A stretch of 64,000 nucleotides of DNA from Bradyrhizobium sp. LLZ17 (lineage in GTDB: Bacteria; Pseudomonadota; Alphaproteobacteria; Rhizobiales; Xanthobacteraceae), in contig NZ_CP165734.1 of NCBI RefSeq assembly GCF_041200145.1, forward strand, positions 1,922,001 to 1,986,000. The letters run 5' to 3'. The notes beneath the pieces were generated by a model. That model searched no databases, was not told the DNA's origin, and was given only the letters and a program-made list of their open reading frames with translations. Below, piece after piece: positions 9,688 to 24,440 of this stretch (positions are counted from its first letter, which is position 1; each line of letters opens with the position of its first letter). The position numbers and the translations under genes were made by a program.

Positions 9688-10461
9688 CTAACGTTCCGCG
9701 AAGGCCTTTTCGACCACGAACTGGGCCGGCTCGCCGTGATTGCCCTCGATGAAACCGCGCTCACCCAGCAGCGAGCGGGTGTCGGCCACCAGCGCCGGGC
9801 TGCCGCAGATCATGACGCGGTCATGGGCCGCTTCCAGGTCCGGCAGGCCGATATCGGCGAACAGCTTGCCGGAGGTGATGAGGTCGGTGATACGGCCGCG
9901 GTTGCGGAACGGGTCGCGCGTCACGGTCGGATAGTAGATTAGCTGAGCGCGGATGTAGTCGCCCAGCAGTTCGTCGTTCGGCAGCTTCTCGGTGATCATC
10001 TCGCCATAGGCGAGCTCCTTGACGTGGCGGCAGCCGTGCAGCAGCACCACCTTCTCGAAACGCTCGTAGGTTTCGGGGTCCTTGATCACGCTCAGGAACG
10101 GCGCGAGCCCGGTGCCGGTGCCGATCAGATAGAGGTTGCGCCCCTCCTCCAGATTGTCGATCACCAGCGTCCCGGTCGCCTTGCGGCTGACGATGATCTC
10201 GTCGCCTTGCTTGAGGTGCTGGAGCCGCGAGGTCAGCGGGCCGTCCGGCACCTTGATGGAGAAGAACTCCAGCGTGTCCTCGTAATTGGCGCTGGCGACG
10301 CTGTAGGCCCGCAGCAGCGGCTTCTCGCCGACCTTGAGCCCGATCATGGTGAATTCGCCGTTGCGGAAACGGAACGTCGGGCTGCGGGTGGTCTTGAAGG
10401 AGAACAGCGTGTCGGTCCAGTGGTGGACGCTCAAAACGCTTTCCTGATTGAAATTGCTCAT
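9688..10461 (-). CDS. fpr: Ferredoxin/flavodoxin-NADP+ reductase
   Basis: A 257-residue FAD enzyme that moves electrons between NADPH and ferredoxin or flavodoxin. Motifs: FRNGEFTMIGL, the FAD-binding RAYSVAS, the NADP-binding GTGTGLAPFLSVIKDP, HGCRHVKELAY, MICGSPALV, and the C-terminal QFVVEKAFAER typical of the bacterial Fpr subclass. The length is normal. Its ATG lies 53 nt from a perfect 30-bp palindrome that it shares with the divergent enamidase gene, so it appears to belong to the nicotinate regulon rather than to an oxidative-stress (SoxR-type) regulon. I infer that it supplies low-potential electrons to 6-hydroxynicotinate reductase through a ferredoxin or flavodoxin encoded elsewhere. 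A general housekeeping role remains possible. Confidence 0.9.
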   Translation of the reverse strand: MSNFNQESVLSVHHWTDTLFSFKTTRSPTFRFRNGEFTMIGLKVGEKPLLRAYSVASANYEDTLEFFSIKVPDGPLTSRLQHLKQGDEIIVSRKATGTLVIDNLEEGRNLYLIGTGTGLAPFLSVIKDPETYERFEKVVLLHGCRHVKELAYGEMITEKLPNDELLGDYIRAQLIYYPTVTRDPFRNRGRITDLITSGKLFADIGLPDLEAAHDRVMICGSPALVADTRSLLGERGFIEGNHGEPAQFVVEKAFAER

Positions 10462-10513
10462 CTCACCCTTCCGTGTCGCTTCATTGCGGTTTTCGAGGCG
10501 GTCAGCTATGCGT

Positions 10514-10543
10514 CATTTGTATACGATCATTCGTATACAAATG
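10514..10543. promoter_or_regulatory. Large perfect palindromic operator between fpr and enamidase
   Basis: A 30-bp perfect inverted repeat: arms CATTTGTATACGA and TCGTATACAAATG around a TCAT spacer. Each arm contains a GTATAC core (10519-10524 and 10533-10538, 14 bp apart), so it may be two adjacent sites. The GTATAC core recurs upstream of hnr at 20200-20205. It probably binds the MarR regulator encoded at 11933-12406 (inference). Confidence 0.8.
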
Positions 10544-10618
10544 AATAATCCAGCTTGATCCCGCGGTCAAGGCTGCCCAAGATCGAAAGCGTTGCAGTTA
10601 AGGACAAGGACCCCTTCC

Positions 10619-11815
10619 ATGGCGCATGACGCACCGCAGGCCGCCGGACCCTCGAAGCTCGTGATCCGCAATATCGGCCTGATCCTGTCGGGCGCGCTGG
10701 AAAAGCCGATCCTGGACGGCGACACCATCGTCGCCGAGAACGGCAAGATCAGCGCCATCGGCCGCTTCAAGGACCTCGACACGGAAGGCGCGACCACGAT
10801 CGTCGACGCCAACGGCACCACCGTCGCGCCCGGTCTGATCGACAGCCACGTCCATCCGGTCGCCGGCGACTGGACGCCGCGGCAGAACCAGATCGGCTGG
10901 ATCGACAGCAACCTGCATGGCGGCGTCACCACCATGATCTCGGCCGGCGAGGTTCACATGCCAGGCCGCCCGCGCGACGTCGTCGGTCTCAAGGCGATGG
11001 CCATCTTCGCCCAGCGCGCTTTCTGGAATTTGCGGCCCGGCGGCGTGAAGGTTCATGCCGGCGCGCCGGTGATCGAATGCGAAATGGTGGAAGAGGACTT
11101 CAAGGAGTTGGCCGCAGCCGGCGTCAAGCTGCTCGGCGAAGTCGGCCTCGGCGGCGTCAAGGACGGACCGACCGCGCGCAGAATGGTCGGCTGGGCCCGC
11201 AAATACGGCATCCAGAGCACGATCCACACCGGCGGCCCCTCGATCCCCGGCTCCGGCCTGATCGACAAGGACGTAGTGCTGGAAGCCGATACCGACGTGG
11301 TCGGTCACATCAATGGCGGCCACACCGCGCTGCCCGACGACCAGATCCGCTGCATCTGCGAGGGCTGCAAGCGTGGGCTCGAGCTCGTTCACAACGGCAA
11401 TGAGCGCTCCGCTTTGTTCACACTGCGCACCGCGCGCGAGATGGGCGATTTGCATCGCGTCATCCTCGGCACCGACGCGCCGGCCGGATCGGGCGTGCAG
11501 CCGCTCGGCATTCTGCGCATGGTCTCGATGTTGTCCTCGCTCGGCGACCTGCCGGCCGAACTCGCCTTCTGCCTGGCCACCGGCAACACCGCGCGGATGC
11601 GCGAGCTCGATTGCGGCCTGATCGAAATCGGCCGCTCCGCCGATTTCGTCATCATGGACAAGGCGCAGCATTCACCGGGCAAGAACATCCTGGAGAGCGT
11701 CCAGCTCGGCGATCTCCCCGGCATCGGCATGACCATCATCGACGGCATCGTACGAACGCAGCGGAGTCGCAACACGCCGCCGGCGGGGAGAGTGCCGGAG
11801 ATGGTGGCGAAGTAG
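10619..11815 (+). CDS. ena: Enamidase (1,4,5,6-tetrahydro-6-oxonicotinate amidohydrolase)
   Basis: A 398-residue metal-dependent amidohydrolase that matches enamidase, which opens 1,4,5,6-tetrahydro-6-oxonicotinate to 2-formylglutarate and ammonia. The start at ATG 10619 has AAGGA 8 nt upstream; an upstream non-ATG extension is not needed. Motifs: APGLIDSHVHPVAGDW (His77, His79), HGGVTTMISAGEVH, STIHTGGPSIPG (His203), VGHINGGHTALPDDQ (His230, His235) and VILGTDAPAGSG (Asp286), which fit a binuclear metal site. The C-terminal beta-domain includes SADFVIMDKAQHSP. It is divergent from fpr across a shared operator and 7 kb from hnr, the preceding step. The alternative reading is a generic dihydroorotase or imidazolonepropionase-like enzyme. 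The hnr/nicAB context argues strongly for enamidase. Confidence 0.88.
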   Translation: MAHDAPQAAGPSKLVIRNIGLILSGALEKPILDGDTIVAENGKISAIGRFKDLDTEGATTIVDANGTTVAPGLIDSHVHPVAGDWTPRQNQIGWIDSNLHGGVTTMISAGEVHMPGRPRDVVGLKAMAIFAQRAFWNLRPGGVKVHAGAPVIECEMVEEDFKELAAAGVKLLGEVGLGGVKDGPTARRMVGWARKYGIQSTIHTGGPSIPGSGLIDKDVVLEADTDVVGHINGGHTALPDDQIRCICEGCKRGLELVHNGNERSALFTLRTAREMGDLHRVILGTDAPAGSGVQPLGILRMVSMLSSLGDLPAELAFCLATGNTARMRELDCGLIEIGRSADFVIMDKAQHSPGKNILESVQLGDLPGIGMTIIDGIVRTQRSRNTPPAGRVPEMVAK

Positions 11816-11832
11816 GCCGGACAGACGGTGCC

Positions 11833-11922: not shown

Positions 11923-11932
11923 AAGACCTGCA

Positions 11933-12406
11933 TCACCTCAGCTTATTAAGAAGCGCCATCAAGGTCTCGCGCTCCTTCGCGTCGAGCGGGGCCAGCGTCT
12001 CGCGGCTGATCGCCAGCGCATTCGGCGCCAGCTTTTCGGCAAGCTGCTGCCCTGCGCGCGTCAGGCTGACCAGCAGCCGCCTGCCATCGCCGGGATCCTG
12101 GCTCGTCTCCGTCAGGCCGCGCACCGAGAGCCGGTCGATCACGCCCTTGATGGTCGCGACATCCATCGACGTCAGCCGCCCGAGCTGGTTCTGCGAGCAC
12201 GGCCCGGTCTCGGCGAGTTTTGACAGCGCCGCCCATTGCGTGGGCGTCAGATTGGTGCCGATGTCGCGGGAGAAGATCGAACTGTGGCGCTGCCAGACCT
12301 GGCGCAGGATGAAGCCGACCTGCTCGTCGAGCACATAAGACGGCTTTGTCTGCTTGACGCTCTTCTTCGCCGCCACACTTCTCGCCATCCGCTCCCCGCC
12401 CCTCAC
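11933..12406 (-). CDS. MarR-family regulator of the nicotinate locus (NicR-like)
   Basis: A winged-helix MarR protein of 151-157 residues. The longer form starts at GTG 12406 and overlaps the livF-type stop; an ATG lies at 12388 (MARSVAAKK). The core shows QVGFILRQVWQRHSSIFSRDIG, LTPTQWAALSKLAETGPCSQNQLGRLTSMDVATIKGVIDRL and the wing RGLTETSQDPGDGRRLLVSLT. It is the last gene of a likely operon running from hnr through the ABC importer. In Pseudomonas putida a MarR protein (NicR) represses nicotinate genes in response to 6-hydroxynicotinate, so a matching role here is likely. It is the best candidate to bind the GTATAC palindromes at 10514 and 20193. The effector cannot be read. Confidence 0.85.
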   Translation of the reverse strand: MRGGERMARSVAAKKSVKQTKPSYVLDEQVGFILRQVWQRHSSIFSRDIGTNLTPTQWAALSKLAETGPCSQNQLGRLTSMDVATIKGVIDRLSVRGLTETSQDPGDGRRLLVSLTRAGQQLAEKLAPNALAISRETLAPLDAKERETLMALLNKLR

Positions 12407-13107
12407 AACGACAGATGCGCGTCACGGATGTCCGGACGCGCATCGAGCTCGGCCATGGTGCCGCCGAAACAGATGCGGCCACGCTCGATGATGTAGGCGC
12501 GATCGGAAATCAATCGCGCAAAATGCAAATTCTGCTCGGAGACGACGATGCTGACGCCCTCCTTCTTCATGGTCAGGATGGCATCGACCATCTGCTCCAC
12601 GATCTTCGGCGACAGGCCCTCCGAGGGCTCATCGAGCAGCACCAGCGACGGATTGCCCATCAGCGTGCGCGCGATCGTCAGCATCTGCTGCTCGCCGCCG
12701 CTCATGCGGCCGCCCGGACGGTGTTTCATCTCGCCCAGATTTGGAAACAACGCGAACAGTTTTTCCCGGGTCCAGTATGGCGCATTCGGACGCTTCGGCT
12801 GGCGGCCGACCTCGAGGTTCTCCTCCACCGTCAGGTCGGTGAAGATGCGCCGTTCCTCCGGTACATAGCCGAGCCCGTCCCGCACGATCTCGTGAGTGGG
12901 ACGTGCCGAGACATCCCTGCCTTCGAACATGATACGTCCCGTGCGCTGCGCAACCAGGCCGACGATCGAGCGGAACGTCGTCGACTTGCCGGCCCCGTTG
13001 CGACCCAGGAGCGCCACGACCTCGCCGTCTCCGACCTCGAAGCCGATGTCGAACAGGATATGCGCCGGGCCATAGTGACTGTTGAGGTCCTGCACCGTGA
13101 GCTTCAT
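12403..13107 (-). CDS. Branched-chain-type ABC importer ATP-binding protein (LivF-like)
   Basis: A 234-residue ATPase with Walker A GRNGAGKST, Q-loop region, signature SGGEQQML and Walker B LVLLDEPSEGLSPKIV, the LivF-specific wording. It powers import together with the LivG-like ATPase and the fused permease. The ATG overlaps the upstream ATPase stop and its own stop overlaps the MarR start, giving a fully coupled unit. Because the unit continues to hnr, the substrate is likely nicotinate or 6-hydroxynicotinate rather than a branched-chain amino acid. That is inference from context; the ATPase gives no specificity. Confidence 0.9.
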   Translation of the reverse strand: MKLTVQDLNSHYGPAHILFDIGFEVGDGEVVALLGRNGAGKSTTFRSIVGLVAQRTGRIMFEGRDVSARPTHEIVRDGLGYVPEERRIFTDLTVEENLEVGRQPKRPNAPYWTREKLFALFPNLGEMKHRPGGRMSGGEQQMLTIARTLMGNPSLVLLDEPSEGLSPKIVEQMVDAILTMKKEGVSIVVSEQNLHFARLISDRAYIIERGRICFGGTMAELDARPDIRDAHLSL

Positions 13108-13895
13108 GCCGAGGCTCCCTCGCGGTGCTCTGCATCGTAAAGCAGGCCCTCGCCGAGATAGACCGCCTGGACCTGTGGGTTGCCGCGCACCTCGGCCGGC
13201 GAACCCTCGGCGATCAGCGTGCCGCGGTTGAGGACGATGATGCGGTCGGCATGCTCGAACACCACGTCCATGTCGTGCTCGGTAAAGAGCACGCCGATCG
13301 ACTTGTCCCGCGCAATGCTTGCGGTGAGCCGCATCAGGTCGACGCGTTCGCGCGGTGCCATGCCGGCGGTCGGCTCGTCCATCAACAGCAATCTTGGCTG
13401 GTTGGCGAGCGCGACCGCGAGCTCGAGCCGCTTGAGGTCGCCATAGGCGAGCTCGCCGCAGGGGCGATCCGCGTAGCCGCTCATGCCGACCAGCTCGAGC
13501 AGGCGACCGGCCTCGCCGCGGTCGACATTGGGCGCCGAGCCCCAGAGGTCGAACAATTGCTGGCCATGCGAAATCAGCGCGACCTGCACATTCTCGCGCA
13601 CCGTCATGGTCGCGAACGTTGCCGTAATCTGGAAAGTGCGCCCGACGCCGAGCCGCCAGACCTCGCGCGGCTTCTTGCCCGTGGTTTCCTCGCCAAGCAG
13701 GCGGACATGGCCCGAATCCGGCCGGTTCTGGCCATTAAGCATGTCGAAGCAGGTGCTCTTGCCCGCGCCGTTCGGGCCGATCAGCGCCAGAATTTCGCCG
13801 GCCCGCAGCGAGAACGAGACGCCGCGCACCGCATGGATGCCGCCATAGGACTTGGTCAGACCTTCGACCGCGAGAAGTGGGGGTGCAACGCTCAT
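13104..13895 (-). CDS. Branched-chain-type ABC importer ATP-binding protein (LivG-like)
   Basis: 263 residues starting at ATG 13895 (MSVAPPLLAVEGLTKSYGGI). That ATG overlaps the permease stop by 4 nt, so the much longer open frame upstream is not used. Walker A is GPNGAGKST, followed by the LivG-type insert LLGEETTGKKPREVWRLGVGRTFQI. Where LivG normally has its LSxGxQ signature this protein reads CGELAYGDLKRLELAVAL, and Walker B is LLLMDEPTAGMAPRERVDLM. The degenerate AYGDLKR-type signature is usual for this subfamily. It forms the ATPase pair with the downstream LivF-like subunit at the inner membrane, and the C-terminal extension (VQAVYLGEGLLYDAE) is typical of LivG. Confidence 0.9.
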   Translation of the reverse strand: MSVAPPLLAVEGLTKSYGGIHAVRGVSFSLRAGEILALIGPNGAGKSTCFDMLNGQNRPDSGHVRLLGEETTGKKPREVWRLGVGRTFQITATFATMTVRENVQVALISHGQQLFDLWGSAPNVDRGEAGRLLELVGMSGYADRPCGELAYGDLKRLELAVALANQPRLLLMDEPTAGMAPRERVDLMRLTASIARDKSIGVLFTEHDMDVVFEHADRIIVLNRGTLIAEGSPAEVRGNPQVQAVYLGEGLLYDAEHREGASA

Positions 13896-15781
13896 TCGGC
13901 GGACTCGATCGGCTTGGCCAGCAAGGGTGATCCCGGCGGGGACGTCTTCCTGCGCCGCTGCGCCAGCATTTCCAGCATGCCGACGATGCCTTTGGGGAAG
14001 ACAACGACGATCAGCACGATGAAGCCGCCGAGCACGAGCTTCGAGAGATCGGTCTGGCTGATCAGCCAGATGCTGAGCGCCTTGTAGACGATGGCCCCGA
14101 TCACCGCGCCCGATACCGTCTCGACGCCGCCGAGCAGCACCATCACCAGCGCGTCGACCGAGAGCGAGATGCCGAGATTGTCGGGGAAGACGCTGCCTTT
14201 GAGGTAAGCGAACAGCGCGCCGCCGATGCCGGCGGTCGTTCCGGCAATCACGAAGGCGGTCCACTGCATCCGCTTGGCATTGATGCCGATCGCCTCGCTG
14301 CGCAGCACCGAATCGCGCGTGGCCCGGAGCGCGTAGCCGAACGGCGAGAACACCGCGATCCGCAAGGCGATCGTGACCAGCGCCGCGACGCCGAGCGCCA
14401 GCCAATAAAAATGGGACGGGCTCGCCGCCCAGCTCGAAGGCCAGACGCCGAGAATGCCGTTATCGCCGCCGGTCACGCTCACCCACTGGAACGCGATCGA
14501 CCACACGATCTGCGCGAAGGCCAGCGTCAGCATCGCGAAATAGACGCCGGAGAGTTGCACGGCGAAGAAGCCGAACACGGCGGCACCCATACAGCCCAGC
14601 AACGGCCCGAGCAGGAGACACACGATCATCGGCAGCCCCGCCATCTTGGCGAGGAAGGCGACGCCGTAGGCGCCGAGCCCGAAATAAGCAGCGTGGCCGA
14701 ACGACGCGAGCCCGCCGACCGACATCAGAAAATGCAGACTGACGGCGAAGATCACGAAGATCGCGATCTCCGAGCCGACCGTGAGCGCGTAATTGCCGGC
14801 GAACAATGGCAGCGTCGCCGCGATGACCAGCGCTGCCAGCGCAGCCAGCCGCTCGTTCGACGTCAGCGGGCGCCAGGGATTGACGGTCAGGCCGGGCGTT
14901 TTGCGTGCGGGCGCCTCGGGCTTGCCGAACAGGCCCCAGGGCCGCACGATCAGCACCGCCGCCATCACCAGAAAGACCAGGATGATCGAGATCTTCGGAA
15001 AGATCAGGATGCCGAAGGCGTTCAATTCGGAGACCAGTACCGCGGCGACGAACGCGCCGATGATGCTGCCGAGGCCGCCGATCACGACGACGACGAAGAC
15101 CTCGACGATGATGCGCAGATCCATCGCGTGATGCACGGCGTCGCGCGGGATCTGGAGCGCGCCGCCGAGCGCGGCCAGGAACACGCCGACCGCAAACACA
15201 GAGGTGAACAGCCATTTCTGATTGACGCCGAGCGCTGCGACCATGTCGCGATCCTGCGTCGCGGCGCGCACCAGCACGCCCCAACGGGTGCGCTGGAACA
15301 GCAGCCAGAGAACGCCGAGCACCACGGGGCCGAGCACGATCAGGAACAAATCGTAACTCGGAATGTTCTGGCCGAAGAAATCGATCGCGCCCTTGAAGCC
15401 CGGCGCCCGGCGCCCGACGAGATCGTCAGGCCCCCAGATCAGGACAACGAGATCCTCGACCATCAGCGTCAGGCCAAAGGTCGCGAGCAGCTGGAACAGT
15501 TCGGGCGCGTGATAGATGCGCCGAAGCAGGACCATCTCGACCAGCACGCCGATCAGCGCCACGGCGAGCGCCGCAATCACGATTGCGCCCCAGAAGCCGA
15601 ACGCGCCGGACAGCCGTTCGGTCAGCGTGAAGGCGATGTAGGCGCCGATCATGTAGAACGCGCCATGCGCGAAATTCACGATCCGCGTCACGCCGAAGAT
15701 GATCGACAGGCCCGACGCCACCAGGAACAGCGACGCTGCGCTGGCGAGACCGGTCAGAAACTGTACGACGTAAAAGGCCAT
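13892..15781 (-). CDS. Fused branched-chain-type ABC permease (LivH-LivM)
   Basis: 629 residues, about twice a single permease. The N-terminal half reads like LivH (MAFYVVQFLTGLASAASLFL, GVTRIVNFAHGAFYMIGAYIA, GGLGSIIGAFVAAVLVSELN). After a linker near residue 295 (KPEAPARKTPGLTVNPW) the C-terminal half reads like LivM (GGLASFGHAAYFGLGAYGVAFLAKMAG, LRATRDSVLRSEAIGINAKR, GVETVSGAVIGAIVYKAL). The two membrane subunits are therefore one polypeptide. The gene is coupled to both ATPases. It follows the binding protein by a 190-nt gap holding a palindromic repeat, which may lower its expression relative to the receptor. Confidence 0.92.
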   Translation of the reverse strand: MAFYVVQFLTGLASAASLFLVASGLSIIFGVTRIVNFAHGAFYMIGAYIAFTLTERLSGAFGFWGAIVIAALAVALIGVLVEMVLLRRIYHAPELFQLLATFGLTLMVEDLVVLIWGPDDLVGRRAPGFKGAIDFFGQNIPSYDLFLIVLGPVVLGVLWLLFQRTRWGVLVRAATQDRDMVAALGVNQKWLFTSVFAVGVFLAALGGALQIPRDAVHHAMDLRIIVEVFVVVVIGGLGSIIGAFVAAVLVSELNAFGILIFPKISIILVFLVMAAVLIVRPWGLFGKPEAPARKTPGLTVNPWRPLTSNERLAALAALVIAATLPLFAGNYALTVGSEIAIFVIFAVSLHFLMSVGGLASFGHAAYFGLGAYGVAFLAKMAGLPMIVCLLLGPLLGCMGAAVFGFFAVQLSGVYFAMLTLAFAQIVWSIAFQWVSVTGGDNGILGVWPSSWAASPSHFYWLALGVAALVTIALRIAVFSPFGYALRATRDSVLRSEAIGINAKRMQWTAFVIAGTTAGIGGALFAYLKGSVFPDNLGISLSVDALVMVLLGGVETVSGAVIGAIVYKALSIWLISQTDLSKLVLGGFIVLIVVVFPKGIVGMLEMLAQRRRKTSPPGSPLLAKPIESAE

Positions 15782-15970: not shown

Positions 15971-17173
15971 TCAATCCTTCGGCCGCAGCTTCTCGACTTC
16001 GGCGTCACCAGGCAGATAGTCCGAGCCCTTCTTGTAGGTGGAGTCGACCATCACGCCCTTGCCGTCCTTCAGCGCGGTCTTGCCGACATAAGCACCGAGC
16101 GTCGACTGGTGGTCGATCTTGCGGAAGGTGATTTCACCGAACGGCGACGGCACCGACAGCCCTTCCGCAGCAGTGATCAGCTTCTCCGGATCGGTCGAGC
16201 CGGCCTTGGCAAGGATCGCCGCCGCCGACTTGATGGTCTGGTAGCCGACGATGGAGCCAAGACGCGGATAGTCGTTGTACTTGGCCTGATAGGCCTTCAG
16301 GAACGCGTCATGCTCGGGCGTCTTGATCGAGTACCAGGGATAGCCGGTGACGATCCAACCCTCGGGCGTCTCCTCCTTGAGCGGATCGAGATATTCCGGC
16401 TCGCCGGTCAGGAACGAGACGACCTCGCGACCCTTGAACAGGCCGCGGGTGTTGCCTTCACGCACGAGCTTGACGAGATCAGCACCGAAGGTGACGTTGA
16501 GGATCGCTTCGGGATTGGCGGCGGCAACGGCCTGCACCACCGGGCCGGCGTCGATCTTGCCCTGCGGCGGCCATTGTTCGTCGACCCACTGGATGTCCGG
16601 ACGCTTCTCCGACATCAGCTTCTTGAACACCGCGACCGCCGACTGGCCGTATTCATAATTCGGCGCGATCGTCGCCCAGCGTTTTGCCGGCAGCTTGCTG
16701 GCTGCTTCCACCAGCATTGCCGCCTGCATGTAGTTGGAGGGACGCAGGCGGAAGGTGTACTTGTTGCCCTTCGACCAGGTGATGGCGTCCGTCAACGGCT
16801 CGGCCGCGAGGAAAAACACCTTTTTCTGGTTGGCGAAGTCGCTGACCGCAAGGCCGATGTTCGACAGGAACGTGCCCGTGAGCATCGCGACGCCCTCGCT
16901 CGAGACGAGCTCGTTGGCCGCGGTCTGCGCATCGGCCGGCTTGCCGCCGTCGTCCTTGGAGATGACGACGAGCTTCTTGCCGTTGATGCCGCCGGCCGCG
17001 TTGATCTCTTCGACCGCGAGCTGCCATCCCTTGCGATAGGGGTCGGTGAAGGCCGGCAGCAGCGAGTAGCTGTTGATCTCGCCGATCTTGATCTCCTGCG
17101 CCAGGGCCGAATGAGCCATGCCGCCGGCCAGAAGCGCGAAGGCCGCGCCGACAAAATAGGTTCTTGCTCGCAT
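15971..17173 (-). CDS. ABC importer periplasmic substrate-binding protein (LivK-like; probable nicotinate/6-hydroxynicotinate receptor)
   Basis: A 400-residue type I periplasmic binding protein. The start at ATG 17173 has GGAGG upstream and a signal peptide (MRARTYFVGAAFALLAGGMA, cleavage near ALAQ-EIKIG). Family features: IKIGEINSYSLLPAFTDPYRKG, AVEEINAAGGINGKKLVVISKDDGG, LTGTFLSNIGLAVSDFA, ATIAPNYEYGQSAV, SIVGYQTIKSAAAIL. It resembles the aromatic-compound and urea-type LivK homologues more than true leucine receptors. It is 39 nt downstream of the DUF1185 gene and upstream of the fused permease. I infer from the operon that it captures nicotinate or a pyridine relative. Confidence 0.88.
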   Translation of the reverse strand: MRARTYFVGAAFALLAGGMAHSALAQEIKIGEINSYSLLPAFTDPYRKGWQLAVEEINAAGGINGKKLVVISKDDGGKPADAQTAANELVSSEGVAMLTGTFLSNIGLAVSDFANQKKVFFLAAEPLTDAITWSKGNKYTFRLRPSNYMQAAMLVEAASKLPAKRWATIAPNYEYGQSAVAVFKKLMSEKRPDIQWVDEQWPPQGKIDAGPVVQAVAAANPEAILNVTFGADLVKLVREGNTRGLFKGREVVSFLTGEPEYLDPLKEETPEGWIVTGYPWYSIKTPEHDAFLKAYQAKYNDYPRLGSIVGYQTIKSAAAILAKAGSTDPEKLITAAEGLSVPSPFGEITFRKIDHQSTLGAYVGKTALKDGKGVMVDSTYKKGSDYLPGDAEVEKLRPKD

Positions 17174-17212
17174 CCCAACCTCCAGTTTTGAACTCACTAC
17201 CTCAGACCGTCT

Positions 17213-17797
17213 TTATCTCAGACCGTCTTCGCCCTTGATCTCCGCAACGGTCAGCCCGCCAACACGCGGCAGCGGACGGCCGCTGTCGGTGACGGCGACC
17301 GCGACCATGATTTCGTTGGCGCGCGGGGCGTCGTTGATCTGGACTTCCATCCCGTCGAAATGGCTGCGCACGAACGCCGCATCCTTGTGGCCGAGGGGAA
17401 TGTCGAGCGTCGTGCCCGGGCCGCTGCGCTTCTTCGAGGACGGGATCAGCGCCGCGCCCTTGCTCAAAACCTTGCGCACTGGCGCGCCCATTTTGGGGTG
17501 AAGAATCGCGGCCGCATGTTCCAGCTCGCCGTTTTCGCCGACGGCCGCCGCCTTGCCATAGCTCTGCGCCTTGGAACCATCGATGCCGAGTGCCGCCACG
17601 GCGCGCTTCGACAGGAGTTCGCCCAGCTCCTCGCCGATCGCGATCAGCGGCGAGAGATCCTCGACATATTGTCCGGCAAAGGGATTTTCGATCACGGCAA
17701 TGGCCGCGGCGCGCCGCGTCGGCGGCGACACCGGGCGGCCCATCTCCATCTGCGTCTCTTCGACGACGGTGACGATCTTGCGAATGATCGCGCTCAT
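17213..17797 (-). CDS. DUF1185 family protein (so-called amino acid synthesis protein)
   Basis: A 194-residue protein matching the DUF1185/AA_synth family: RKIVTVVEETQMEMGRPVSPP, RRAAAIAVIENPFAGQYVEDL, GEELGELLSKRAVAALG, GKAAAVGENGELEHAAAILHPKMG, GPGTTLDIPLGHKDAAFVRSHFD, and a conserved tail PLPRVGGLTVAEIKGEDG. It is cytoplasmic, with no membrane segment. The family name comes from old genetics and no reaction is established that I know of. It lies 15 nt after the UPF0280 gene and 39 nt before the importer receptor, so it sits inside the nicotinate operon. That suggests a step such as processing of a ring or formylglutarate intermediate, which is speculation. Confidence 0.82.
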   Translation of the reverse strand: MSAIIRKIVTVVEETQMEMGRPVSPPTRRAAAIAVIENPFAGQYVEDLSPLIAIGEELGELLSKRAVAALGIDGSKAQSYGKAAAVGENGELEHAAAILHPKMGAPVRKVLSKGAALIPSSKKRSGPGTTLDIPLGHKDAAFVRSHFDGMEVQINDAPRANEIMVAVAVTDSGRPLPRVGGLTVAEIKGEDGLR

Positions 17798-17812: not shown

Positions 17813-18712
17813 TCAGGCATGATTCGCATTTTCCAGCACAGCCGGGCGCGATCGTTGCCGCTCAATGTCCTTTGTTCCGATGACAAGCATATCACCACAA
17901 AGCTGCAACACGGCACCTTCGATCAATCCACGGTCGAACAATTCCCGTGCACATTCCGCGCCAGATTCGAGCGCCGTGGCGATCTCGGCCCGCGACAATT
18001 CACCGACCTCGCGGGTCACGAGACGTGCGCCGAGATCGCTGTCGGGCTGAAGCGCGTTCGCAGGCTGCCGGATGATCGCAGGATGCCCGGGCAGATCGAC
18101 AGCATTGGCGATGATCGTCGCCGCCGCATCAGCCTGCGACGCGGTCAGGGCCAGCACCGTCACGGCATCCGCAATTCCGAGCGAAAAGCTGCGGCCGTGA
18201 CGTCCGCTGGTCGCGATGCCGCGCACGGGATCGTTTGCATTGACCTTCATCGTTCGCATCACGCCATCGCGATCGAGGCGGTCCATCAGGCCGACCGAAA
18301 AGTGCTCGCCTTCGCCGAGATAGATCGCGATGTCGCCGCCGTTATTGACATAGGCCTGATCGAGCGATGCCGCCGCCAGCATGGCACCGAGGATCTCCTC
18401 CGCCACGCTTCCGGCAACCGCCGCCATCGGCGTGATGAAGCAATCGCCGGCATGCGCGGAGACGGCTGCGTGCATGCGTCGTGCAACAACGCCGTTCAGT
18501 GCGCACGTCCCCGGCACCACCGCCTTGCGCAATTCGGTCAGCTCGGCGCAGAGTTCATCGAGCAGACCGGTGAAACGGCGCGCCGCCGCCTCGTAAGCCG
18601 CACGCACGTGGTGCCCGCGCCCCCTCGCCTCCACGATCAAATCAATCGGTCCATCCTGCAAATGCAGCCGCCGGCCATCAGACAGCAATGCGATTTGCGG
18701 GAGCCTTGTCAT
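17813..18712 (-). CDS. UPF0280 family protein, ApbE-like (candidate flavin transferase for Hnr)
   Basis: 299 residues of the UPF0280 family, which is related to the ApbE FAD:protein FMN transferase fold. Seen are GTCALNGVVARRMHAAVSAHAGD, MAAVAGSVAEEILGAML, the ApbE-like YVNNGGDIAIYLGEGE (GGD at 125-127) and SLGIADAVTVLALTASQADAA near the position of the ApbE C-terminal DALST block. No signal peptide is present, so it acts in the cytoplasm. Its ATG overlaps the hnr stop by 4 nt. 6-Hydroxynicotinate reductase from E. barkeri was reported to carry covalent flavin (recalled, not checked). A dedicated flavin-attachment role is therefore attractive but unproven. Confidence 0.75.
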   Translation of the reverse strand: MTRLPQIALLSDGRRLHLQDGPIDLIVEARGRGHHVRAAYEAAARRFTGLLDELCAELTELRKAVVPGTCALNGVVARRMHAAVSAHAGDCFITPMAAVAGSVAEEILGAMLAAASLDQAYVNNGGDIAIYLGEGEHFSVGLMDRLDRDGVMRTMKVNANDPVRGIATSGRHGRSFSLGIADAVTVLALTASQADAAATIIANAVDLPGHPAIIRQPANALQPDSDLGARLVTREVGELSRAEIATALESGAECARELFDRGLIEGAVLQLCGDMLVIGTKDIERQRSRPAVLENANHA

Positions 18713-20166
18713 GCTCGCCGTCCTGGAATCGGGTTCTGCCAGGGCAACTGGCGGACATCATCACCGCCCCTCACCTCGGACAGCGGCTTCACGTAATCCA
18801 TGTGCCCGCCGAGCGCGGCATAATCGGTCAGTTTCATCGTGAACTCGATCGGCGCGACCAGCGCCGGGGTCGGCACGTAGCCGAACGCGCCTGAAGGCAT
18901 CTGCGTCACGTCGACCATGTAGGTGATGCCGCCGCCCGGCCAGACGTAGACCGGCGCGCCGCCGCTGGTGACGCGCGTCAACGCGTCTTTCACCGAGCGC
19001 GTCAGCCGCACCGGATTGTCGGTGACGCCCGCGCGCAACGAGCCGCCGGCACCCGCCATAAACAGCACCGTGCACAGCGCCGGCTCGCAATTCTCCTGGA
19101 TACGCTCGACCGAGAACTTCAGATCCGGCGGCATCTCGGTCTCGACCGGCTTCAAGGCCGCGTCGAGCACATAATAAGACGAATGCTCGCCGGTCGTGGA
19201 GACCATCAGGATCGTCAGCCCAGGCCTGGCTTCCTTGGCGTCGAACGGTCCGAGGATCGCCAGCGGATCGGAGATGTTGGTGCCGCCCCAGCCCGTTCCG
19301 GGATCGGCGACCTGGAAATAGCGGCCGGGCGTCGAGCGCCGGCCCTTCATCTTGATGCCGGTATCGGCGATATCGAGCAGCTTGCCGGCCTGGTGCTCGC
19401 TGAGCACGCCGGTGATGTGGTCGTCGACCACGACGACTTCGTCGACCTTGCCGTGCCATTGCTTGGCGAACATGCCGATGGTCGCCGAGCCGCAACCGAC
19501 GCGCATGCGCTCTTCCTTGGCGCCGTTGACGACCGGCGGCTGGCCGGCCTGCACCACCACGGTCGCACCGCCGTCCACAGTGAGTTCGACGGGCTTGCAA
19601 TTGGCGAGGTCCATCAGCGTGTCGCAGGTGACCCGGCCCTCTTTCTTGGAACCGCCGGTCAGATGATGCACTCCGCCGAGCGAGAGCATCTGCGAGCCGT
19701 ATTCGCTGGTGGTGACGTGGCCGACCGCTTCGCCCTGCGCGCGCACGGTCGCGGTTTCCGGCCCGAGATAGCGGTCGGTGTCGATCTTCACCTTGATGCC
19801 GCAATAGGAGAAGATGCCTTCGGTGACGACGGTCACCATGTCGACGCCGTCGACCTCGGACGACACGATGAACGGCGCGGGCTTGTAATCGGGATAGGTG
19901 GTGCCGGCGCCGATCGCGGTCACGAAGGTCGAGGGCTCGTGGACGATCTTGCCGTCCCAATCTTCGGTGCGGCTGAACGGCACCAGCTTGCCGCCCTGCG
20001 ACACCGTGCGTTCAAGGATGATGTGCGGATCGACGCGAACGAGCTTGCCGTCGTCATTGGCATAGCGGTCGCAGGCGCCCGCCGCGCCTGGCTTAATGTA
20101 GCACATCACCGGACAGGCATCGCAGCGGATCTTGTCGGTGGCGGCGCTCGTCGTTTCAGTCACCAT
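18709..20166 (-). CDS. hnr: 6-Hydroxynicotinate reductase
   Basis: 485 residues. It reduces 6-hydroxynicotinate to 1,4,5,6-tetrahydro-6-oxonicotinate, the substrate of enamidase. The N-terminus holds an Fe-S motif, Cys15-x2-Cys18-x3-Cys22 and Cys32 (RCDACPVMCYIKPGAAGACDRY). Further conserved cysteines are in FSYCGIKV, VTCDTLMDLANC, RVGCGSATIG and ENCEPALC. Flavin- or glycine-rich blocks include HLTGGSKKEGR, DPGTGWGGTNI and MAGAGGSLRAGV. The start at ATG 20166 puts a GTATAC palindrome 27-46 nt upstream. It heads the long minus-strand operon UPF0280-DUF1185-ABC importer-MarR and is divergent from nicAB. In E. barkeri reduced ferredoxin is the donor, which makes the co-regulated fpr a natural partner. 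Confidence 0.88.
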   Translation of the reverse strand: MVTETTSAATDKIRCDACPVMCYIKPGAAGACDRYANDDGKLVRVDPHIILERTVSQGGKLVPFSRTEDWDGKIVHEPSTFVTAIGAGTTYPDYKPAPFIVSSEVDGVDMVTVVTEGIFSYCGIKVKIDTDRYLGPETATVRAQGEAVGHVTTSEYGSQMLSLGGVHHLTGGSKKEGRVTCDTLMDLANCKPVELTVDGGATVVVQAGQPPVVNGAKEERMRVGCGSATIGMFAKQWHGKVDEVVVVDDHITGVLSEHQAGKLLDIADTGIKMKGRRSTPGRYFQVADPGTGWGGTNISDPLAILGPFDAKEARPGLTILMVSTTGEHSSYYVLDAALKPVETEMPPDLKFSVERIQENCEPALCTVLFMAGAGGSLRAGVTDNPVRLTRSVKDALTRVTSGGAPVYVWPGGGITYMVDVTQMPSGAFGYVPTPALVAPIEFTMKLTDYAALGGHMDYVKPLSEVRGGDDVRQLPWQNPIPGRRA

Positions 20167-20192
20167 GTCAAAGCCAGCGGATCACGACGGTT

Positions 20193-20212: not shown

Positions 20213-20346
20213 GTTGCGCGCGCTCCGGATAGCTGTCAAGCGGCGCCGCAGGCGAAAAGACGCCGCTGCCGAATAAAACCCCATTTGCCTCCCGGCGCTG
20301 TCCACAAAGCGGGCAGTTGCGCTGCACTGCGGGATGGCGGCTTGCA

Positions 20347-20362
20347 CGTTTGTGTACAAACG
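20347..20362. promoter_or_regulatory. Palindrome CGTTTGT-GT-ACAAACG upstream of nicAB
   Basis: Seven-nt inverted arms around a 2-nt centre, 68 nt upstream of the nicA ATG. The TTTGT/ACAAA arms match the outer arms of the fpr/enamidase operator but lack the GTATAC core, so a second regulator or a weaker site is possible. It is the only clear palindrome close to the nicAB start. Confidence 0.65.
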
Positions 20363-20430
20363 GTATCGTCGCGACATACGACTTGCGACCGCGGTCGCCA
20401 GAGCTTGAGAACCAGAGCTTGGAAACGAGG

Positions 20431-20913
20431 ATGACGCAGACACCGAGCCGCCTCACCGTGAACGGCAGGATCCACGACGTCGCGGCGGCGCCGCAGACGC
20501 CGCTGCTCTATGTGCTGCGCAACGATCTTCAACTCAATAGCCCGAAATATGGCTGCGGCCTCGGCGAATGCGGCACCTGCACTGTCCTGATCGACGGCGC
20601 CCCGGCGCGCTCCTGCGTGATTCCCGTCGGCGGCTGCACGGGACGCGACATCGTCACGCTCGAAGGACTCGGCACAAGCGACAAGCCGGATGTGGTGCAG
20701 CAGGCCTTCATCGACGAGCAGGCCGCGCAGTGCGGCTACTGCCTCAACGGCATGATCATGACCACGAAGGCGCTGCTCGCGATCAATCCGCGGCCGACCC
20801 AGCAGGAGGCACTGGCGGCGCTACGCTACAATCTCTGCCGCTGCGGCACGCATGTCGAAATCCTCCGCGCGGTGATGCGCGCATCGGGCCAGCTCGCCGG
20901 GGCCTGTGACTGA
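20431..20913 (+). CDS. nicA: Nicotinate dehydrogenase (hydroxylase) small subunit, [2Fe-2S]
   Basis: A 160-residue iron-sulfur subunit of the xanthine dehydrogenase family, like P. putida NicA. An N-terminal plant-type ferredoxin domain has the cluster ligands in YGCGLGECGTCTVLIDG and ARSCVIPVGGC. A C-terminal helical domain has the second [2Fe-2S] site in QCGYCLNGMIM and NLCRCGTHVEIL. The start at ATG 20431 gives the normal NicA length; the open frame upstream covers the operator and is not used. It passes electrons from the molybdenum centre of NicB to the c-type hemes. The stop overlaps the nicB ATG (TGATG), so the two subunits are coupled. Its control site is the palindrome at 20347. Confidence 0.92.
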   Translation: MTQTPSRLTVNGRIHDVAAAPQTPLLYVLRNDLQLNSPKYGCGLGECGTCTVLIDGAPARSCVIPVGGCTGRDIVTLEGLGTSDKPDVVQQAFIDEQAAQCGYCLNGMIMTTKALLAINPRPTQQEALAALRYNLCRCGTHVEILRAVMRASGQLAGACD

Positions 20914-23900
20914 TGGCCTCCGCTGTTTCGAACGGAGCTGAGCGGGCATCCGGCTCGCTTGTCGTGGTCCGCACCGTGGACGAGGTCACGTCCGAGACCT
21001 TCGTGCGGATCACCGCCGACGGCTCCGTCGCCGCCTATAATGGCCATGTCGATCTCGGCACCGGCATCCGCACTGCGCTCGGCCAGATCGTCGCCGAGGA
21101 ACTGGACGTCTCCTTTGCCCGCGTCGTGGTGGTGCTCGGCGACACCGCCATTGTGCCGAACCAGGGCGCGACGATTGCGAGCGAAACCATCCAGATTACC
21201 GCTGTCCCTCTGCGCAAGGCCGCAGCGCAAGCGCGGCACTTCCTGATCGCGCGCGCGGCGGAGCGCCTAGAGCTGCCGGCGATCGACCTCGAGATCGAGG
21301 ACGGCCTCGTCCGCGGACACAATCGCAGCGTCAGCTATGGCGAGTTGATCGGCGATGCGACCATTCGCCTCGAGCTTGATGACGACGTGCACGTCAAGGC
21401 CGTCAGCGACTACGCCATCGTCGGCCAGTCGATGCCCCGCGTTGATCTCCCAGCAAAGGCCACGGGCGAGCTGACCTTCGTGCACGACATCCGCGTGCCC
21501 GGCATGCTGCACGGCCGCGTCGTGCGTCCACCCTATGCCGGCGTCGATGCCGGTCCGTTCGTCGGCACCAGCCTGATCGCCGTCGACGAATCATCGGTGC
21601 GCGACATTCCCGGCCTCACTGCCGTCGTGCGGGTCGGCGATTTCGTCGGCGTGGTCGCCGAGCGCGAAGAGAATGCGATTCGCGCTGCCGAGCAGCTCAA
21701 GTTGAGCTGGAAGCCGACACCGGCGCTGACCGACCTCGCCGACGTCGAGACGGCGCTGCGCGCCAATCCGTCGACGCCGCGCACGCTGATCGACAAGGGC
21801 GACGTGACCATGGCGATTGCCGGGGCGGCCAAGCCGATCCAGCGCACTTACGTCTGGCCGTATCAGATGCACGCTTCGATCGGCCCCTCCTGCGCGGTCG
21901 CCGACTTCCAGAACGGCAACATCCGAGTCTGGTCGGGTACCCAAAATCCGCACCTGCTGCGCGGCGACCTTGCCCTGCTGATCGAGCGCCCGGAGAGCGA
22001 GATCGAGGTGATCCGGCTCGAGGCCGCCGGCTGCTATGGCCGCAACTGCGCCGACGATGTCACTGCGGATGCGCTGCTGCTGTCGCGCGCGGTCGGTCGT
22101 CCCGTGCGCGTGCAATTGACACGCGAGCAGGAGCACGCCTGGGAGCCCAAGGGCACCGCGCAGCTCATCGATGTCAATGGCGGCCTGAATGCCGAAGGCG
22201 GCGTCGCGGCTTACGATCTCGCCACGCGCTATCCGTCGAACGCGGCGCCGACGCTGGCGCTGTTGCTGACGGGACGGATCTCGCCCGAGCCCGCCGTCCT
22301 CCAGATGGGCGATCGCACCGCGATCCCGCCCTACGATTACGACCATATGCGCGTCGTCGCCCACGACATGGCGCCGATCGTGCGCGCGTCCTGGCTTCGC
22401 GGCGTCTCGGCGCTGCCGAACACCTTTGCGCACGAATCCTACATCGACGAGCTCGCCAACGAGGCCGGCGTCGATCCAATCGAATACCGCCTGCGCTACC
22501 TCAGGGATCAGCGCGCGGTCGATCTCGTCAATGCGGTCGCCGAGCGCGCGGGTTGGACGCCACGGCCGGTGCGCGAGGAGAAAGACGGCGAGGTCGTGCA
22601 CGGGCGCGGCTTCGCCTATGCGCTCTATGTCCACAGCAAGTTTCCCGGCTATGGCGCGGCGTGGTCGGCCTGGGTGGCCGACGTTGCCGTCAACAAGACC
22701 ACCGGCGATGTCAGCGTGACGCGTGTGATCGCGGGACAAGACTCCGGATTGATGATCAATCCGGATGGCGTGCGCCACCAGATCCACGGCAATGTCATCC
22801 AATCGACCAGCCGCGCGCTGATGGAGGAAGTCTCGTTCGAGCGCGGCGCGGTGGCGGCGCGCGAATGGGGCGCCTATCCGATCATTCCCTTCCCCGACAT
22901 ACCCAAGATCGACGTGTTGTTGCTGCCGCGGCCGGACCAGCCGCCACTCGGCGTCGGCGAGTCCGCCTCCGTGCCGAGCGCTGCGGCGATTGCCAATGCA
23001 ATCTTCGACGCCACCGGCGTGCGCTTTCGCGAACCTCCGTTTACGCCGGAGCGTATCCTGAGGGGACTGCGTGGCGACGCAGCAGCCAGGCCGCAAGCCC
23101 TGCCCGCTCCGCCCAGGCCACAGCCGTCACGCATCTGGCAAAATCCGTTCGCCAAGCGCACCGGCATGTTCGCGACGATTGCAGCTGTCTGCACCGCTGC
23201 GATCGGTATCGGAACAGCGCTGCTGCCCGGTCGCGCCATCGCGCCGATCGCGCAGCCGGATGCGTCAGTCTATTCCGCGGCGACGATCGCGCGCGGCCAG
23301 CAGCTCGCGGCGCTCGGCAATTGCGCGGAGTGCCACACCAATGTCCGTGGTGCGCCCAATGCCGGCGGCCGCGCGCTGGAGACGCCGTTCGGCACGATCT
23401 ACGCAACCAACATCACGCCCGACGTCGAAACCGGAATCGGTGCCTGGTCCTATCCGGCCTTCGAGCGCGCGATGCGCGACGGGCTGCATCGCGACGGTCG
23501 GCAGCTCTATCCGGCTTTTCCCTACACGCATTTTTCTAAGACGAGCGATGCCGACCTTCAGGCGCTCTACGCCTATTTGATGGCGCAGCCTGCGGTGCGG
23601 GCCACGGCGCCTGCGAACACGCTGGCCTTCCCGTTCAACCTTCGTCCGCTGCTTGCGGGATGGAATGCGCTGTTCCACCGGCCCAACGAGTTCAAGCCCG
23701 ATCCCGCAAAATCCGAGCAGTGGAATCGCGGCGCCTATCTGGTCGAGGGCCTCGGCCATTGCAGCGCCTGCCACTCGCCGCGCAACGCGCTCGGCGCCGA
23801 GCGGCGCAACGCCTATCTCGCCGGCGGCTTTGCCGAGGGCTGGGAGGCGCCGGCGCTCACCTCGCTCTCGCTCGCGCCGATCCCGTGGAGCGAGGACGAG

Positions 23901-24440
23901 CTGTTCGCCTATTTGCGCACCGGCCAGTCGCGCTATCACGGCGTCGCCGCCGGCCCGATGGCTCCGATCATCAGGGATCTCACGGCGCTGCCCGACCACG
24001 AGATCCGTGCGATGGCGGTCTATCTCAACTCATTCAGCGACGCTGCGACCGACCGGCAGACGCAGGATGCGCTCGCTGCGGAGCTCGAAGCGGCGACGCA
24101 AGTCACCGTCGCGGCGTCCGCCGGCGCGCGGCTCTATCAGGGCGCCTGCGCGGTCTGCCACGAGGTCGGTGGCCTGCCGCTGTTCGGCAGCCGGCCCTCG
24201 CTCGCGCTCAACAGCAATCTGCACAGCGCGACGCCGGACAACCTTGTGCAAGTCATCCTGCACGGCATCACCGAGCCGGCCTCCAGCGATCTCGGCTACA
24301 TGCCCGCTTTCAGGAACAGCATGAGCGACGCGCAGCTCGAAGCGCTCGTCACGTTCCTGCGCCGGCAGTTTGCGCCCGACAGGCCGGCGTGGAGCGGCGT
24401 CCGCGAGACGATTGCGCGCGTGCGCACGTCAACTCACTAA
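20913..24440 (+). CDS. nicB: Nicotinate dehydrogenase large subunit, molybdopterin domain fused to a triheme cytochrome c
   Basis: 1175 residues. The first about 720 form a xanthine dehydrogenase-type Mo-cofactor domain: YNGHVDLGTGIRTALGQIVAEE near the start, RVDLPAKATGELTFVHDIRVPGMLHGRVVR, EAAGCYGRNCADDV, and GVGESASVPSAAAIANAIFDATG with the catalytic GVGE glutamate near residue 690. A membrane anchor follows (MFATIAAVCTAAIGIGTALL from residue 752). Then come three c-type heme motifs: CAECH (804), CSACH (950) and CAVCH (1079). This is the architecture of P. putida NicB, which hydroxylates nicotinate to 6-hydroxynicotinate and sends electrons to the respiratory chain. The start of the Mo domain comes before the usual order of aldehyde-oxidase domains, as in other isoquinoline or nicotinate-type relatives. 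Its stop overlaps the convergent dioxygenase stop. Confidence 0.92.
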   Translation: MASAVSNGAERASGSLVVVRTVDEVTSETFVRITADGSVAAYNGHVDLGTGIRTALGQIVAEELDVSFARVVVVLGDTAIVPNQGATIASETIQITAVPLRKAAAQARHFLIARAAERLELPAIDLEIEDGLVRGHNRSVSYGELIGDATIRLELDDDVHVKAVSDYAIVGQSMPRVDLPAKATGELTFVHDIRVPGMLHGRVVRPPYAGVDAGPFVGTSLIAVDESSVRDIPGLTAVVRVGDFVGVVAEREENAIRAAEQLKLSWKPTPALTDLADVETALRANPSTPRTLIDKGDVTMAIAGAAKPIQRTYVWPYQMHASIGPSCAVADFQNGNIRVWSGTQNPHLLRGDLALLIERPESEIEVIRLEAAGCYGRNCADDVTADALLLSRAVGRPVRVQLTREQEHAWEPKGTAQLIDVNGGLNAEGGVAAYDLATRYPSNAAPTLALLLTGRISPEPAVLQMGDRTAIPPYDYDHMRVVAHDMAPIVRASWLRGVSALPNTFAHESYIDELANEAGVDPIEYRLRYLRDQRAVDLVNAVAERAGWTPRPVREEKDGEVVHGRGFAYALYVHSKFPGYGAAWSAWVADVAVNKTTGDVSVTRVIAGQDSGLMINPDGVRHQIHGNVIQSTSRALMEEVSFERGAVAAREWGAYPIIPFPDIPKIDVLLLPRPDQPPLGVGESASVPSAAAIANAIFDATGVRFREPPFTPERILRGLRGDAAARPQALPAPPRPQPSRIWQNPFAKRTGMFATIAAVCTAAIGIGTALLPGRAIAPIAQPDASVYSAATIARGQQLAALGNCAECHTNVRGAPNAGGRALETPFGTIYATNITPDVETGIGAWSYPAFERAMRDGLHRDGRQLYPAFPYTHFSKTSDADLQALYAYLMAQPAVRATAPANTLAFPFNLRPLLAGWNALFHRPNEFKPDPAKSEQWNRGAYLVEGLGHCSACHSPRNALGAERRNAYLAGGFAEGWEAPALTSLSLAPIPWSEDELFAYLRTGQSRYHGVAAGPMAPIIRDLTALPDHEIRAMAVYLNSFSDAATDRQTQDALAAELEAATQVTVAASAGARLYQGACAVCHEVGGLPLFGSRPSLALNSNLHSATPDNLVQVILHGITEPASSDLGYMPAFRNSMSDAQLEALVTFLRRQFAPDRPAWSGVRETIARVRTSTH

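What the first reader, a model, noticed from the sequence alone, without database searches (positions are those of the whole stretch)
9688..24440. Hybrid nicotinate catabolism locus: aerobic NicAB front end joined to the reductive Hnr-enamidase route
Seen: nicA-nicB (Mo domain plus three hemes), hnr with a CxxCxxxC...C Fe-S motif, and enamidase, with importer and MarR in one 15-kb block. Known: P. putida NicAB feeds the oxidative maleamate route; Hnr and enamidase are known from anaerobic Eubacterium barkeri; a reductive aerobic nicotinate route was described biochemically in Azorhizobium caulinodans (recalled, not checked). Here genes for nicotinate to 6-hydroxynicotinate to tetrahydro-6-oxonicotinate to 2-formylglutarate lie together in a probable Bradyrhizobium, and the maleamate genes (nicC, nicX, nicD, nicF) are absent from the window. 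This may be a complete genetic description of the aerobic reductive pathway.
Basis: partly seen in the sequence, partly recalled or inferred. Interest (0 to 1): 0.8.

Follow-up and report, generated by a model that had tools for sequence, protein, structure and literature searches.

The report
Rhizobial nicotinate cluster with helper gene
This stretch is a gene cluster with which Bradyrhizobium-type soil bacteria probably break down vitamin B3 (nicotinate) by reducing its ring, a cluster type already published in 2012; what is new here is that the ring reductase keeps company with one unexplained partner gene that has the fold of a flavin-attaching enzyme.

Summary
Block 9688-24440 encodes a NicAB-type hydroxylase (Mo domain, three heme motifs), Hnr, an enamidase (E 4e-110 to PDB 2vun), an ABC importer, a MarR repressor and an FNR-type reductase. 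The pathway reading is supported: the MarR resembles BpsR (6-hydroxynicotinate-sensing), keeping 3 of its 4 ligand contacts. A palindrome TTYGTRTACRAA stands in both divergent promoter regions; of five distinct exact sites in the 7.8-Mb genome, a fourth precedes a nicotinamidase gene. But it is not new: PMC3511419 (2012) already described this cluster in Azorhizobium, B. [quoted passage not shown] Nor is it complete: no gene for the later decarboxylation and glutarate steps was recognised. One, a UPF0280 protein (17813-18712), is above its cut-off in exactly the 21 of 299 sampled Pseudomonadota genomes that have hnr, and accompanies hnr in 80 of 80 named loci (78 in the locus, 2 elsewhere in the genome). 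It has the ApbE flavin-transferase fold but lacks ApbE's histidine loop. I propose that it matures Hnr, most likely by attaching its flavin (about 0.45).

The parts
9688..10461 (-). FNR-type flavoprotein (best NCBIfam model: ferredoxin--NADP(+) reductase, 164 bits, below its cut-off of 390); proposed electron donor to Hnr
   Evidence: in 33 of 80 loci; a gene annotated ferredoxin--NADP reductase is near hnr in 3 of 3 plasmid loci read
10516..10541 (.). operator pair (10516-10527 one mismatch; 10530-10541 exact) between fnr and ena, motif TTYGTRTACRAA
10619..11815 (+). enamidase (ORF opens at 10592; ATG at 10619)
   Evidence: E 3.6e-110 to PDB 2vun; start
11933..12406 (-). MarR repressor, BpsR-like; Y24, R35, H41 match three 6-hydroxynicotinate contacts of BpsR, F32 stands for its His23
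12403..13107 (-). LivF-type ABC ATPase
13104..13895 (-). LivG-type ABC ATPase
   Evidence: start
13892..15781 (-). fused LivH-LivM type permease (two BPD_transp_2 stretches)
15971..17197 (-). periplasmic substrate-binding protein (best PDB match 3i45, E 4e-154)
17213..17797 (-). PF06684 (AA_synth, DUF1185) protein, role unknown
   Evidence: in 71 of 80 hnr loci and 20 of 21 hnr genomes
17813..18712 (-). UPF0280 (COG2122) protein, ApbE fold; proposed cofactor maturase of Hnr; its start overlaps the hnr stop by 4 bases
18709..20166 (-). hnr, 6-hydroxynicotinate reductase; CxxCxxxC-x9-C motif
   Evidence: 42% identity of the SG-6C homologue to the E. barkeri enzyme is from PMC3511419
20197..20208 (.). 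operator TTCGTATACGAA upstream of hnr
   Evidence: same motif upstream of hnr in 42 of 78 related loci
20349..20360 (.). operator TTTGTGTACAAA upstream of nicA
20431..20913 (+). NicA-like [2Fe-2S] subunit (ORF opens at 20317; ATG at 20431)
20913..24440 (+). NicB-like Mo-cofactor subunit with C-terminal three-heme cytochrome c region

Best explanation
The block is the reductive (Azorhizobium-type) nicotinate catabolic locus. Inferred operation: a branched-chain-type ABC importer brings in nicotinate; NicAB hydroxylates it to 6-hydroxynicotinate and passes the electrons through its c-hemes to the respiratory chain; Hnr reduces 6-hydroxynicotinate to 1,4,5,6-tetrahydro-6-oxonicotinate with electrons from the FNR-type reductase (perhaps through a ferredoxin); the enamidase opens the ring to 2-formylglutarate and ammonia. 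A BpsR-like MarR, probably released by 6-hydroxynicotinate, represses from TTYGTRTACRAA operators in front of hnr, nicA, ena/fnr and, elsewhere in the genome, an apparently exported nicotinamidase. The UPF0280 protein is a dedicated maturation partner of Hnr, most likely the enzyme that attaches Hnr's covalent flavin (my confidence in that sub-claim about 0.45; in 'works for Hnr' about 0.85). PF06684 may act on a downstream aldehyde or enol intermediate such as 2-formylglutarate (about 0.25). Shown here: gene content, conservation, co-occurrence, operator motifs, predicted fold. Inferred: all substrates, reactions and regulator-operator binding.
Against: For flavin attachment: ApbE's HIIDPxTG loop (I take its His to be the general base His257 described in PMC12052999) falls in a gap of the UPF0280 alignment. 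No DxxSGA[ST] or even [ST]GA[ST] motif exists in any of 80 Hnr sequences; the nearest conserved one is GCGSAT in 75 of 80. hhalign aligned only residues 109-200, in line with the printed remark that COG2122's homology to ApbE does not seem to reach the flavin-binding region (PMC5764234). UPF0280 is below the Pfam ApbE cut-off (24.1 against 25.6 bits). 11 of 21 hnr genomes do have a canonical ApbE. For the pathway: MarR has Phe for His23, whereas PMC6837509 says its BpsR homologues keep all four contacts; four full-length Bradyrhizobium loci lack the enamidase within the stretch held; hnr also occurs beside hydantoinase-type genes with no enamidase annotated in the stretch read, so Hnr homologues may take other substrates; no metabolite or mutant data. 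The fifth operator-like site lies by a GntR regulator and tcuA, so the motif may not be exclusive to this MarR.
Confidence: 0.8

Rival explanations
1. UPF0280 is needed by Hnr but not as a flavin transferase: it handles sulfur or Fe-S cluster loading, as proposed for COG2122 in methanogens, or is a stable subunit of the reductase.
For: ApbE's His loop and target motif missing. COG2122 works with DUF39 and NIL/ferredoxin proteins in homocysteine synthesis in Desulfovibrio vulgaris, and a persulfide role was suggested by others (PMC5764234 passages). Hnr has conserved cysteines beyond the N-terminal cluster, e.g. 224 and 359 in the numbering of alignment A2.
Against: DUF39 (PF01837) is in 0 of 299 Pseudomonadota genomes, so the homocysteine role cannot explain the gene there. 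The fold is that of flavin transferases; Ser169, Asp195 and Thr199, in the ATSG and ADxxxT motifs that align with ApbE's, are invariant in 42 of 42. No Pfam match of Hnr to DUF39 appeared in 36 members.
Confidence: 0.4
2. The block degrades another hydroxylated N-heterocycle, and the nicotinate reading follows only from annotation.
For: hnr modules with other XDH-like hydroxylases (28 of 80 loci) and one with hydantoinase-type genes suggest related substrates in other bacteria. NicB's best-scoring solved relatives are aldehyde dehydrogenase subunits (8gy3); the nicotinate dehydrogenase subunits 3hrd_B and 3hrd_A score 110 and 50 bits.
Against: This locus has the enamidase, the BpsR-like repressor and an operator shared with a nicotinamidase gene. 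Strain SG-6C, which has the published cluster, degrades 6-chloronicotinate through 6-hydroxynicotinate and the nicotinic acid pathway (start of abstract; passages).
Confidence: 0.07
3. Nicotinate is degraded in this strain mainly by an oxidative maleamate route encoded elsewhere.
For: Only one step was tested in the whole genome; nicC, nicD and nicF belong to large superfamilies and were not searched outside the window. The operator-linked amidohydrolase is of the isochorismatase family, to which maleamate amidohydrolase also belongs (recalled), although it exceeds the nicotinamidase model's cut-off.
Against: The only PF02073 locus of the genome (superfamily of NicX, recalled; two adjacent matches in different frames) is, by its larger piece, an aminopeptidase T/PepS relative. 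No nicC- or nicX-like protein was seen among the ten ORFs scanned around the two operator sites outside the block.
Confidence: 0.05

Closest known systems
Nicotinate degradation cluster of Azorhizobium caulinodans ORS571 (AZC_2804-2790), B. japonicum USDA110 (blr3818-3830), R. palustris HaA2, Bradyrhizobiaceae SG-6C (PMC3511419)
   Different: No difference of substance known; the published loci themselves were not fetched or compared. That their two unknowns are UPF0280 and PF06684 is inferred
Eubacterium barkeri nicotinate fermentation cluster (Alhapel 2006, recalled)
   Same: Hnr and enamidase steps
   Different: Front end: NicAB with three hemes instead of the Se/Mo nicotinate dehydrogenase (its subunits 3hrd_B/A match NicB at 110 and 50 bits); whether E. 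barkeri has UPF0280 was not tested
Pseudomonas putida nic cluster (oxidative maleamate route, recalled)
   Same: NicAB-type front end, MarR regulation
   Different: No ring-cleaving dioxygenase route recognised; the regulator resembles BpsR, which PMC6837509 says differs from NicR in the 6HNA-binding residues
ApbE flavin transferases (PDB 6nxi, 4xgv, 7esa)
   Different: No His loop, no DxxSGA[ST] target motif in Hnr
BpsR of Bordetella (PDB 6pco/6pcp)
   Same: MarR family, 3 of 4 6HNA contacts, tied to nicotinate genes
   Different: Phe in place of His23; for BpsR the recognised DNA sequence was reported unclear, here a palindrome is seen
COG2122 proteins of methanogens and Desulfovibrio (DVU1097, PDB 2o34)
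   Different: There linked to homocysteine synthesis with DUF39, which is absent here

Membership tests
Azorhizobium-type reductive nicotinate cluster | Hydroxylase, Hnr, enamidase and ABC importer genes together | tested here: met
   published cluster description
Azorhizobium-type reductive nicotinate cluster | Growth on nicotinate through tetrahydro-6-oxonicotinate | not testable with these tools
   needs culture and metabolites
Enamidase | Full-length homology to the solved enzyme | tested here: met
   E 3.6e-110, residues 21-403 to 2-384 of 2vun
6-hydroxynicotinate reductase | Homology to the biochemically characterised E. barkeri Hnr | not tested
   E. barkeri sequence not in hand; 42% for the SG-6C homologue is from PMC3511419
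6-hydroxynicotinate reductase | Covalent flavin and Fe-S clusters (recalled) | not testable with these tools
   Fe-S type cysteines conserved; flavin needs mass spectrometry
NicAB | Mo-cofactor subunit with C-terminal multi-heme cytochrome c | tested here: met
ApbE flavin transferase (PF02424) | ApbE fold | tested here: met
ApbE flavin transferase (PF02424) | Pfam gathering score | tested here: not met
   24.1 bits, cut-off 25.6
ApbE flavin transferase (PF02424) | Catalytic Ser and Asp | tested here: met
   ATSG and ADxxxT motifs align with ApbE; Ser169, Asp195, Thr199 invariant 42/42; equivalence to Ser241/Asp285 of V. cholerae ApbE is inferred
ApbE flavin transferase (PF02424) | Catalytic His (in HIIDPxTG) | tested here: not met
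   loop falls in an alignment gap
ApbE flavin transferase (PF02424) | Target motif DxxSGA[ST] in the partner protein | tested here: not met
   0 of 80 Hnr
BpsR-type repressor | Four 6HNA contacts Tyr15, His23, Arg26, His32 | tested here: not met
   three of four; His23 is Phe
COG2122 homocysteine system | DUF39 partner | tested here: not met
   PF01837 in 0 of 299 genomes, own genome included
Oxidative maleamate (nic) route | NicX-type dioxygenase (PF02073 superfamily, recalled) in the genome | tested here: inconclusive
   one PF02073 locus, closest to aminopeptidase T/PepS

The most novel reading that the evidence does not exclude
UPF0280/COG2122 is a divergent cofactor-transferase branch of the ApbE superfamily, dedicated to one client enzyme and, having no export signal in view, cytoplasmic. 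In Pseudomonadota it attaches the covalent flavin of Hnr at a non-classical site (for example in the conserved VGCGSAT stretch) without the classical histidine; the same chemistry on another client would explain why COG2122 is needed for homocysteine synthesis in Desulfovibrio and methanogens. Hnr, UPF0280 and PF06684 form a portable ring-reduction module that combines with different hydroxylases and ring-opening enzymes.
Probability: 0.4. Interest if true: 0.68.

Novelty: new member of a known kind. Interest (0 to 1): 0.42.

Why it matters
The cluster itself is of a published kind. The value lies in the helper: the close pairing of a ring-reducing Fe-S/flavoenzyme with an ApbE-fold protein gives a concrete, cheap test for what UPF0280/COG2122 does, a family that I found in print only in work on homocysteine and sulfur metabolism. 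The operator TTYGTRTACRAA and the nicotinamidase gene behind it suggest that nicotinamide use and nicotinate catabolism are tied in this strain, and give a handle for finding genes of the missing downstream steps.

Tried and rejected
Rejected: that the cluster is unreported (one search shows otherwise). Rejected: that UPF0280 here serves homocysteine synthesis (DUF39 absent from 299 genomes). Held unlikely: that the glyoxalase-family gene 24437-25405 and the P450 gene 7802-9106 belong to the pathway (found in 15 and 6 of 80 loci).

Led nowhere: the Hnr fold. The AlphaFold model is poor (pLDDT 65) and Foldseek's best E-value was 0.29; with a model this weak nothing follows. Pfam gives only a weak GCV_T_C match. 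A literature search for TgnF returned unrelated papers in the rows listed. The 120 Hnr relatives listed (8000 scored) were all close ones, so E. barkeri and other Firmicutes were not reached.

Absence of the operator directly upstream of hnr in the 28 other-hydroxylase loci is partly expected, because hnr there mostly lies directly downstream of the hydroxylase genes and may have no promoter of its own.

Full report
What is there. The block 9688-24440 reads as one catabolic locus with two divergent promoter regions. On the minus strand, from 20166 down to 11933, lie hnr, the UPF0280 gene, the PF06684 gene, a periplasmic binding protein, a fused permease, two ATPases and a MarR gene, tightly packed; hnr and the UPF0280 gene overlap by 4 bases. 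nicA and nicB run the other way from 20431. A second divergent pair is the FNR-type reductase (minus) and the enamidase (plus) around 10462-10618. NicB carries Mo-cofactor domains and three CxxCH motifs. Hnr has no Pfam family at the default threshold, only a weak GCV_T_C match. The enamidase matches PDB 2vun at E 3.6e-110. Over 80 loci selected for hnr, the enamidase is in 43 and the FNR gene in 33; many contigs end early, but four full-length Bradyrhizobium loci (L040, L046, L048, L049) also lack the enamidase in the stretch held.

Prior art. The glutarate half of the pathway is mentioned there and recalled from Kitts 1992 (not held); none of its genes was recognised in the block.

Independent support for nicotinate. 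The MarR is most similar to PDB 2nnn and then to BpsR, the 6-hydroxynicotinate-sensing repressor of Bordetella. Of BpsR's ligand contacts Tyr15, His23, Arg26 and His32 (PMC6837509 passages), three are kept (Y24, R35, H41) and one is not (F32); the paper says that the homologues it compared keep all four. The two divergent promoter regions share a palindrome. The pattern TTYGTRTACRAA has three distinct exact sites in the window, all here, mean 0.00 in shuffles. The whole genome holds only five distinct sites; the reversed pattern has 0 forward and 1 reverse match. The fourth site has 47 bases between it and the ATG of a nicotinamidase gene (NF008623, 194 bits, cut-off 174) whose N-terminus looks like a Tat signal (my reading of the DNA). 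The fifth lies between tcuA and a GntR/FCD regulator and may belong to that regulator. In relatives the motif stands within 300 bases upstream of hnr in 42 of 78 loci that hold that stretch: 40 of 45 with a NicB-type hydroxylase, 0 of 28 with another XDH-like hydroxylase, 2 of 5 with none in the locus; reversed-pattern control, one strand, 0 of 78 (2 of the 80 loci dropped for lack of upstream sequence).

The overlooked partner gene. UPF0280 above its curated cut-off occurs in 21 of 299 Pseudomonadota genomes, the same 21 that have hnr; one further genome, G293, has a weak 22-bit match. By genus, hnr is in 8 of 153. The matched stretches lie within 138 bases of each other in 20 of 21 genomes and 564 bases apart in one (my arithmetic). 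In 80 named loci the gene is in the locus in 78; 76 of these lie within about 300 bases, L099 at 1.5 kb, L078 at 8.3 kb. The two without it (L065 Acidisphaera, L083 a Bradyrhizobiaceae MAG) carry it elsewhere in the genome; the Acidisphaera copy has one in-frame TAG. So the pair is kept even where linkage is lost. The two samples overlap: L088 and G008 share a contig length of 159131. PF06684 is looser: 20 of 21 hnr genomes and 21 of 278 others. It is a tandem pair in the three plasmid loci read and beside hnr in G008 and G207; this genome has one copy.

PF06684. The family has a chorismate-mutase-like fold (PMC2954203 passages). PMC7913881 (passages) cites a homologue, TgnF, from trigonelline degradation that stimulates succinic semialdehyde oxidation, but reports that attempts to see such an effect with its own protein HcdD failed. 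Trigonelline and nicotinate breakdown both yield formyl-dicarboxylates (recalled), which suggests, weakly, a role on 2-formylglutarate. Against it: in the Pseudosulfitobacter locus PF06684 sits with hnr although no enamidase is annotated in the stretch.

Not in print, as far as searched: 'UPF0280' 0 papers, 'COG2122' 4 (one read in passages, three seen as listing), '6-hydroxynicotinate reductase' 2 (one read in passages), 'PF06684' 2 (both read in passages), all in the open-licence PMC library only. Most subscription papers are not held, so a prior proposal cannot be excluded.

Verdict. Observation confirmed; pathway supported; novelty claim not supported; completeness not supported. The interest that remains lies in the hnr-UPF0280 pair and in the operator regulon.

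Noticed in passing
L181:4531-5280 (G000:C1 about 4907530-4908279): Nicotinamidase gene outside the window with the same operator motif as the nic promoters and an N-terminus that looks like a Tat signal; might make nicotinate in the periplasm.
   Followed up: partly
L173 (Pseudosulfitobacter sp. DSM 107133 plasmid): hnr-UPF0280-PF06684-PF06684 near hydantoinase/oxoprolinase genes and a ring-hydroxylating dioxygenase, with no enamidase annotated in the stretch read: perhaps the same module for another N-heterocycle.
   Followed up: no
L063-L103 (28 loci): 28 of 80 hnr loci have a different XDH-like hydroxylase without heme segment, mostly directly upstream of hnr; hydroxylase types appear swapped between lineages.
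   Followed up: partly
L171, L172, L173; G008:C6, G207:C2 (beside hnr); G123:C11, G194:C11 (another contig than hnr): PF06684 genes as tandem pairs, while this genome has a single copy.
   Followed up: no
L127 (genome of L065, Acidisphaera sp. L21): UPF0280 copy unlinked from hnr, with one in-frame TAG.
   Followed up: no
G016:C1:2969820-2971240: hnr match in two overlapping pieces, as if frame-shifted (L021, L022).
   Followed up: no
window 25821-27579: HerA-type (DUF87) domain read in two overlapping ORFs of different frame, possibly a broken gene.
   Followed up: no
G000:C1:3274609-3274620 (L180): Fifth operator-like site TTTGTATACAAA between tcuA and a GntR/FCD regulator; maybe that regulator's own site.
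   Followed up: partly
window 18709-20166 (residues 121-157 in A2 numbering): Weak GCV_T_C (glycine cleavage T-protein barrel) match in 35 of 36 Hnr sequences, best E 3.2e-4.
   Followed up: no
G000:C1:5487829-5489033 (L169, L170): M29 aminopeptidase-like gene matched in two pieces in different frames, as if frame-shifted.
   Followed up: no
window 56896-58653: NAD synthetase (NadE type) gene in the same window; probably coincidence.
   Followed up: no
window 38453-42423: Two Kup-type potassium transporter genes in tandem.
   Followed up: no
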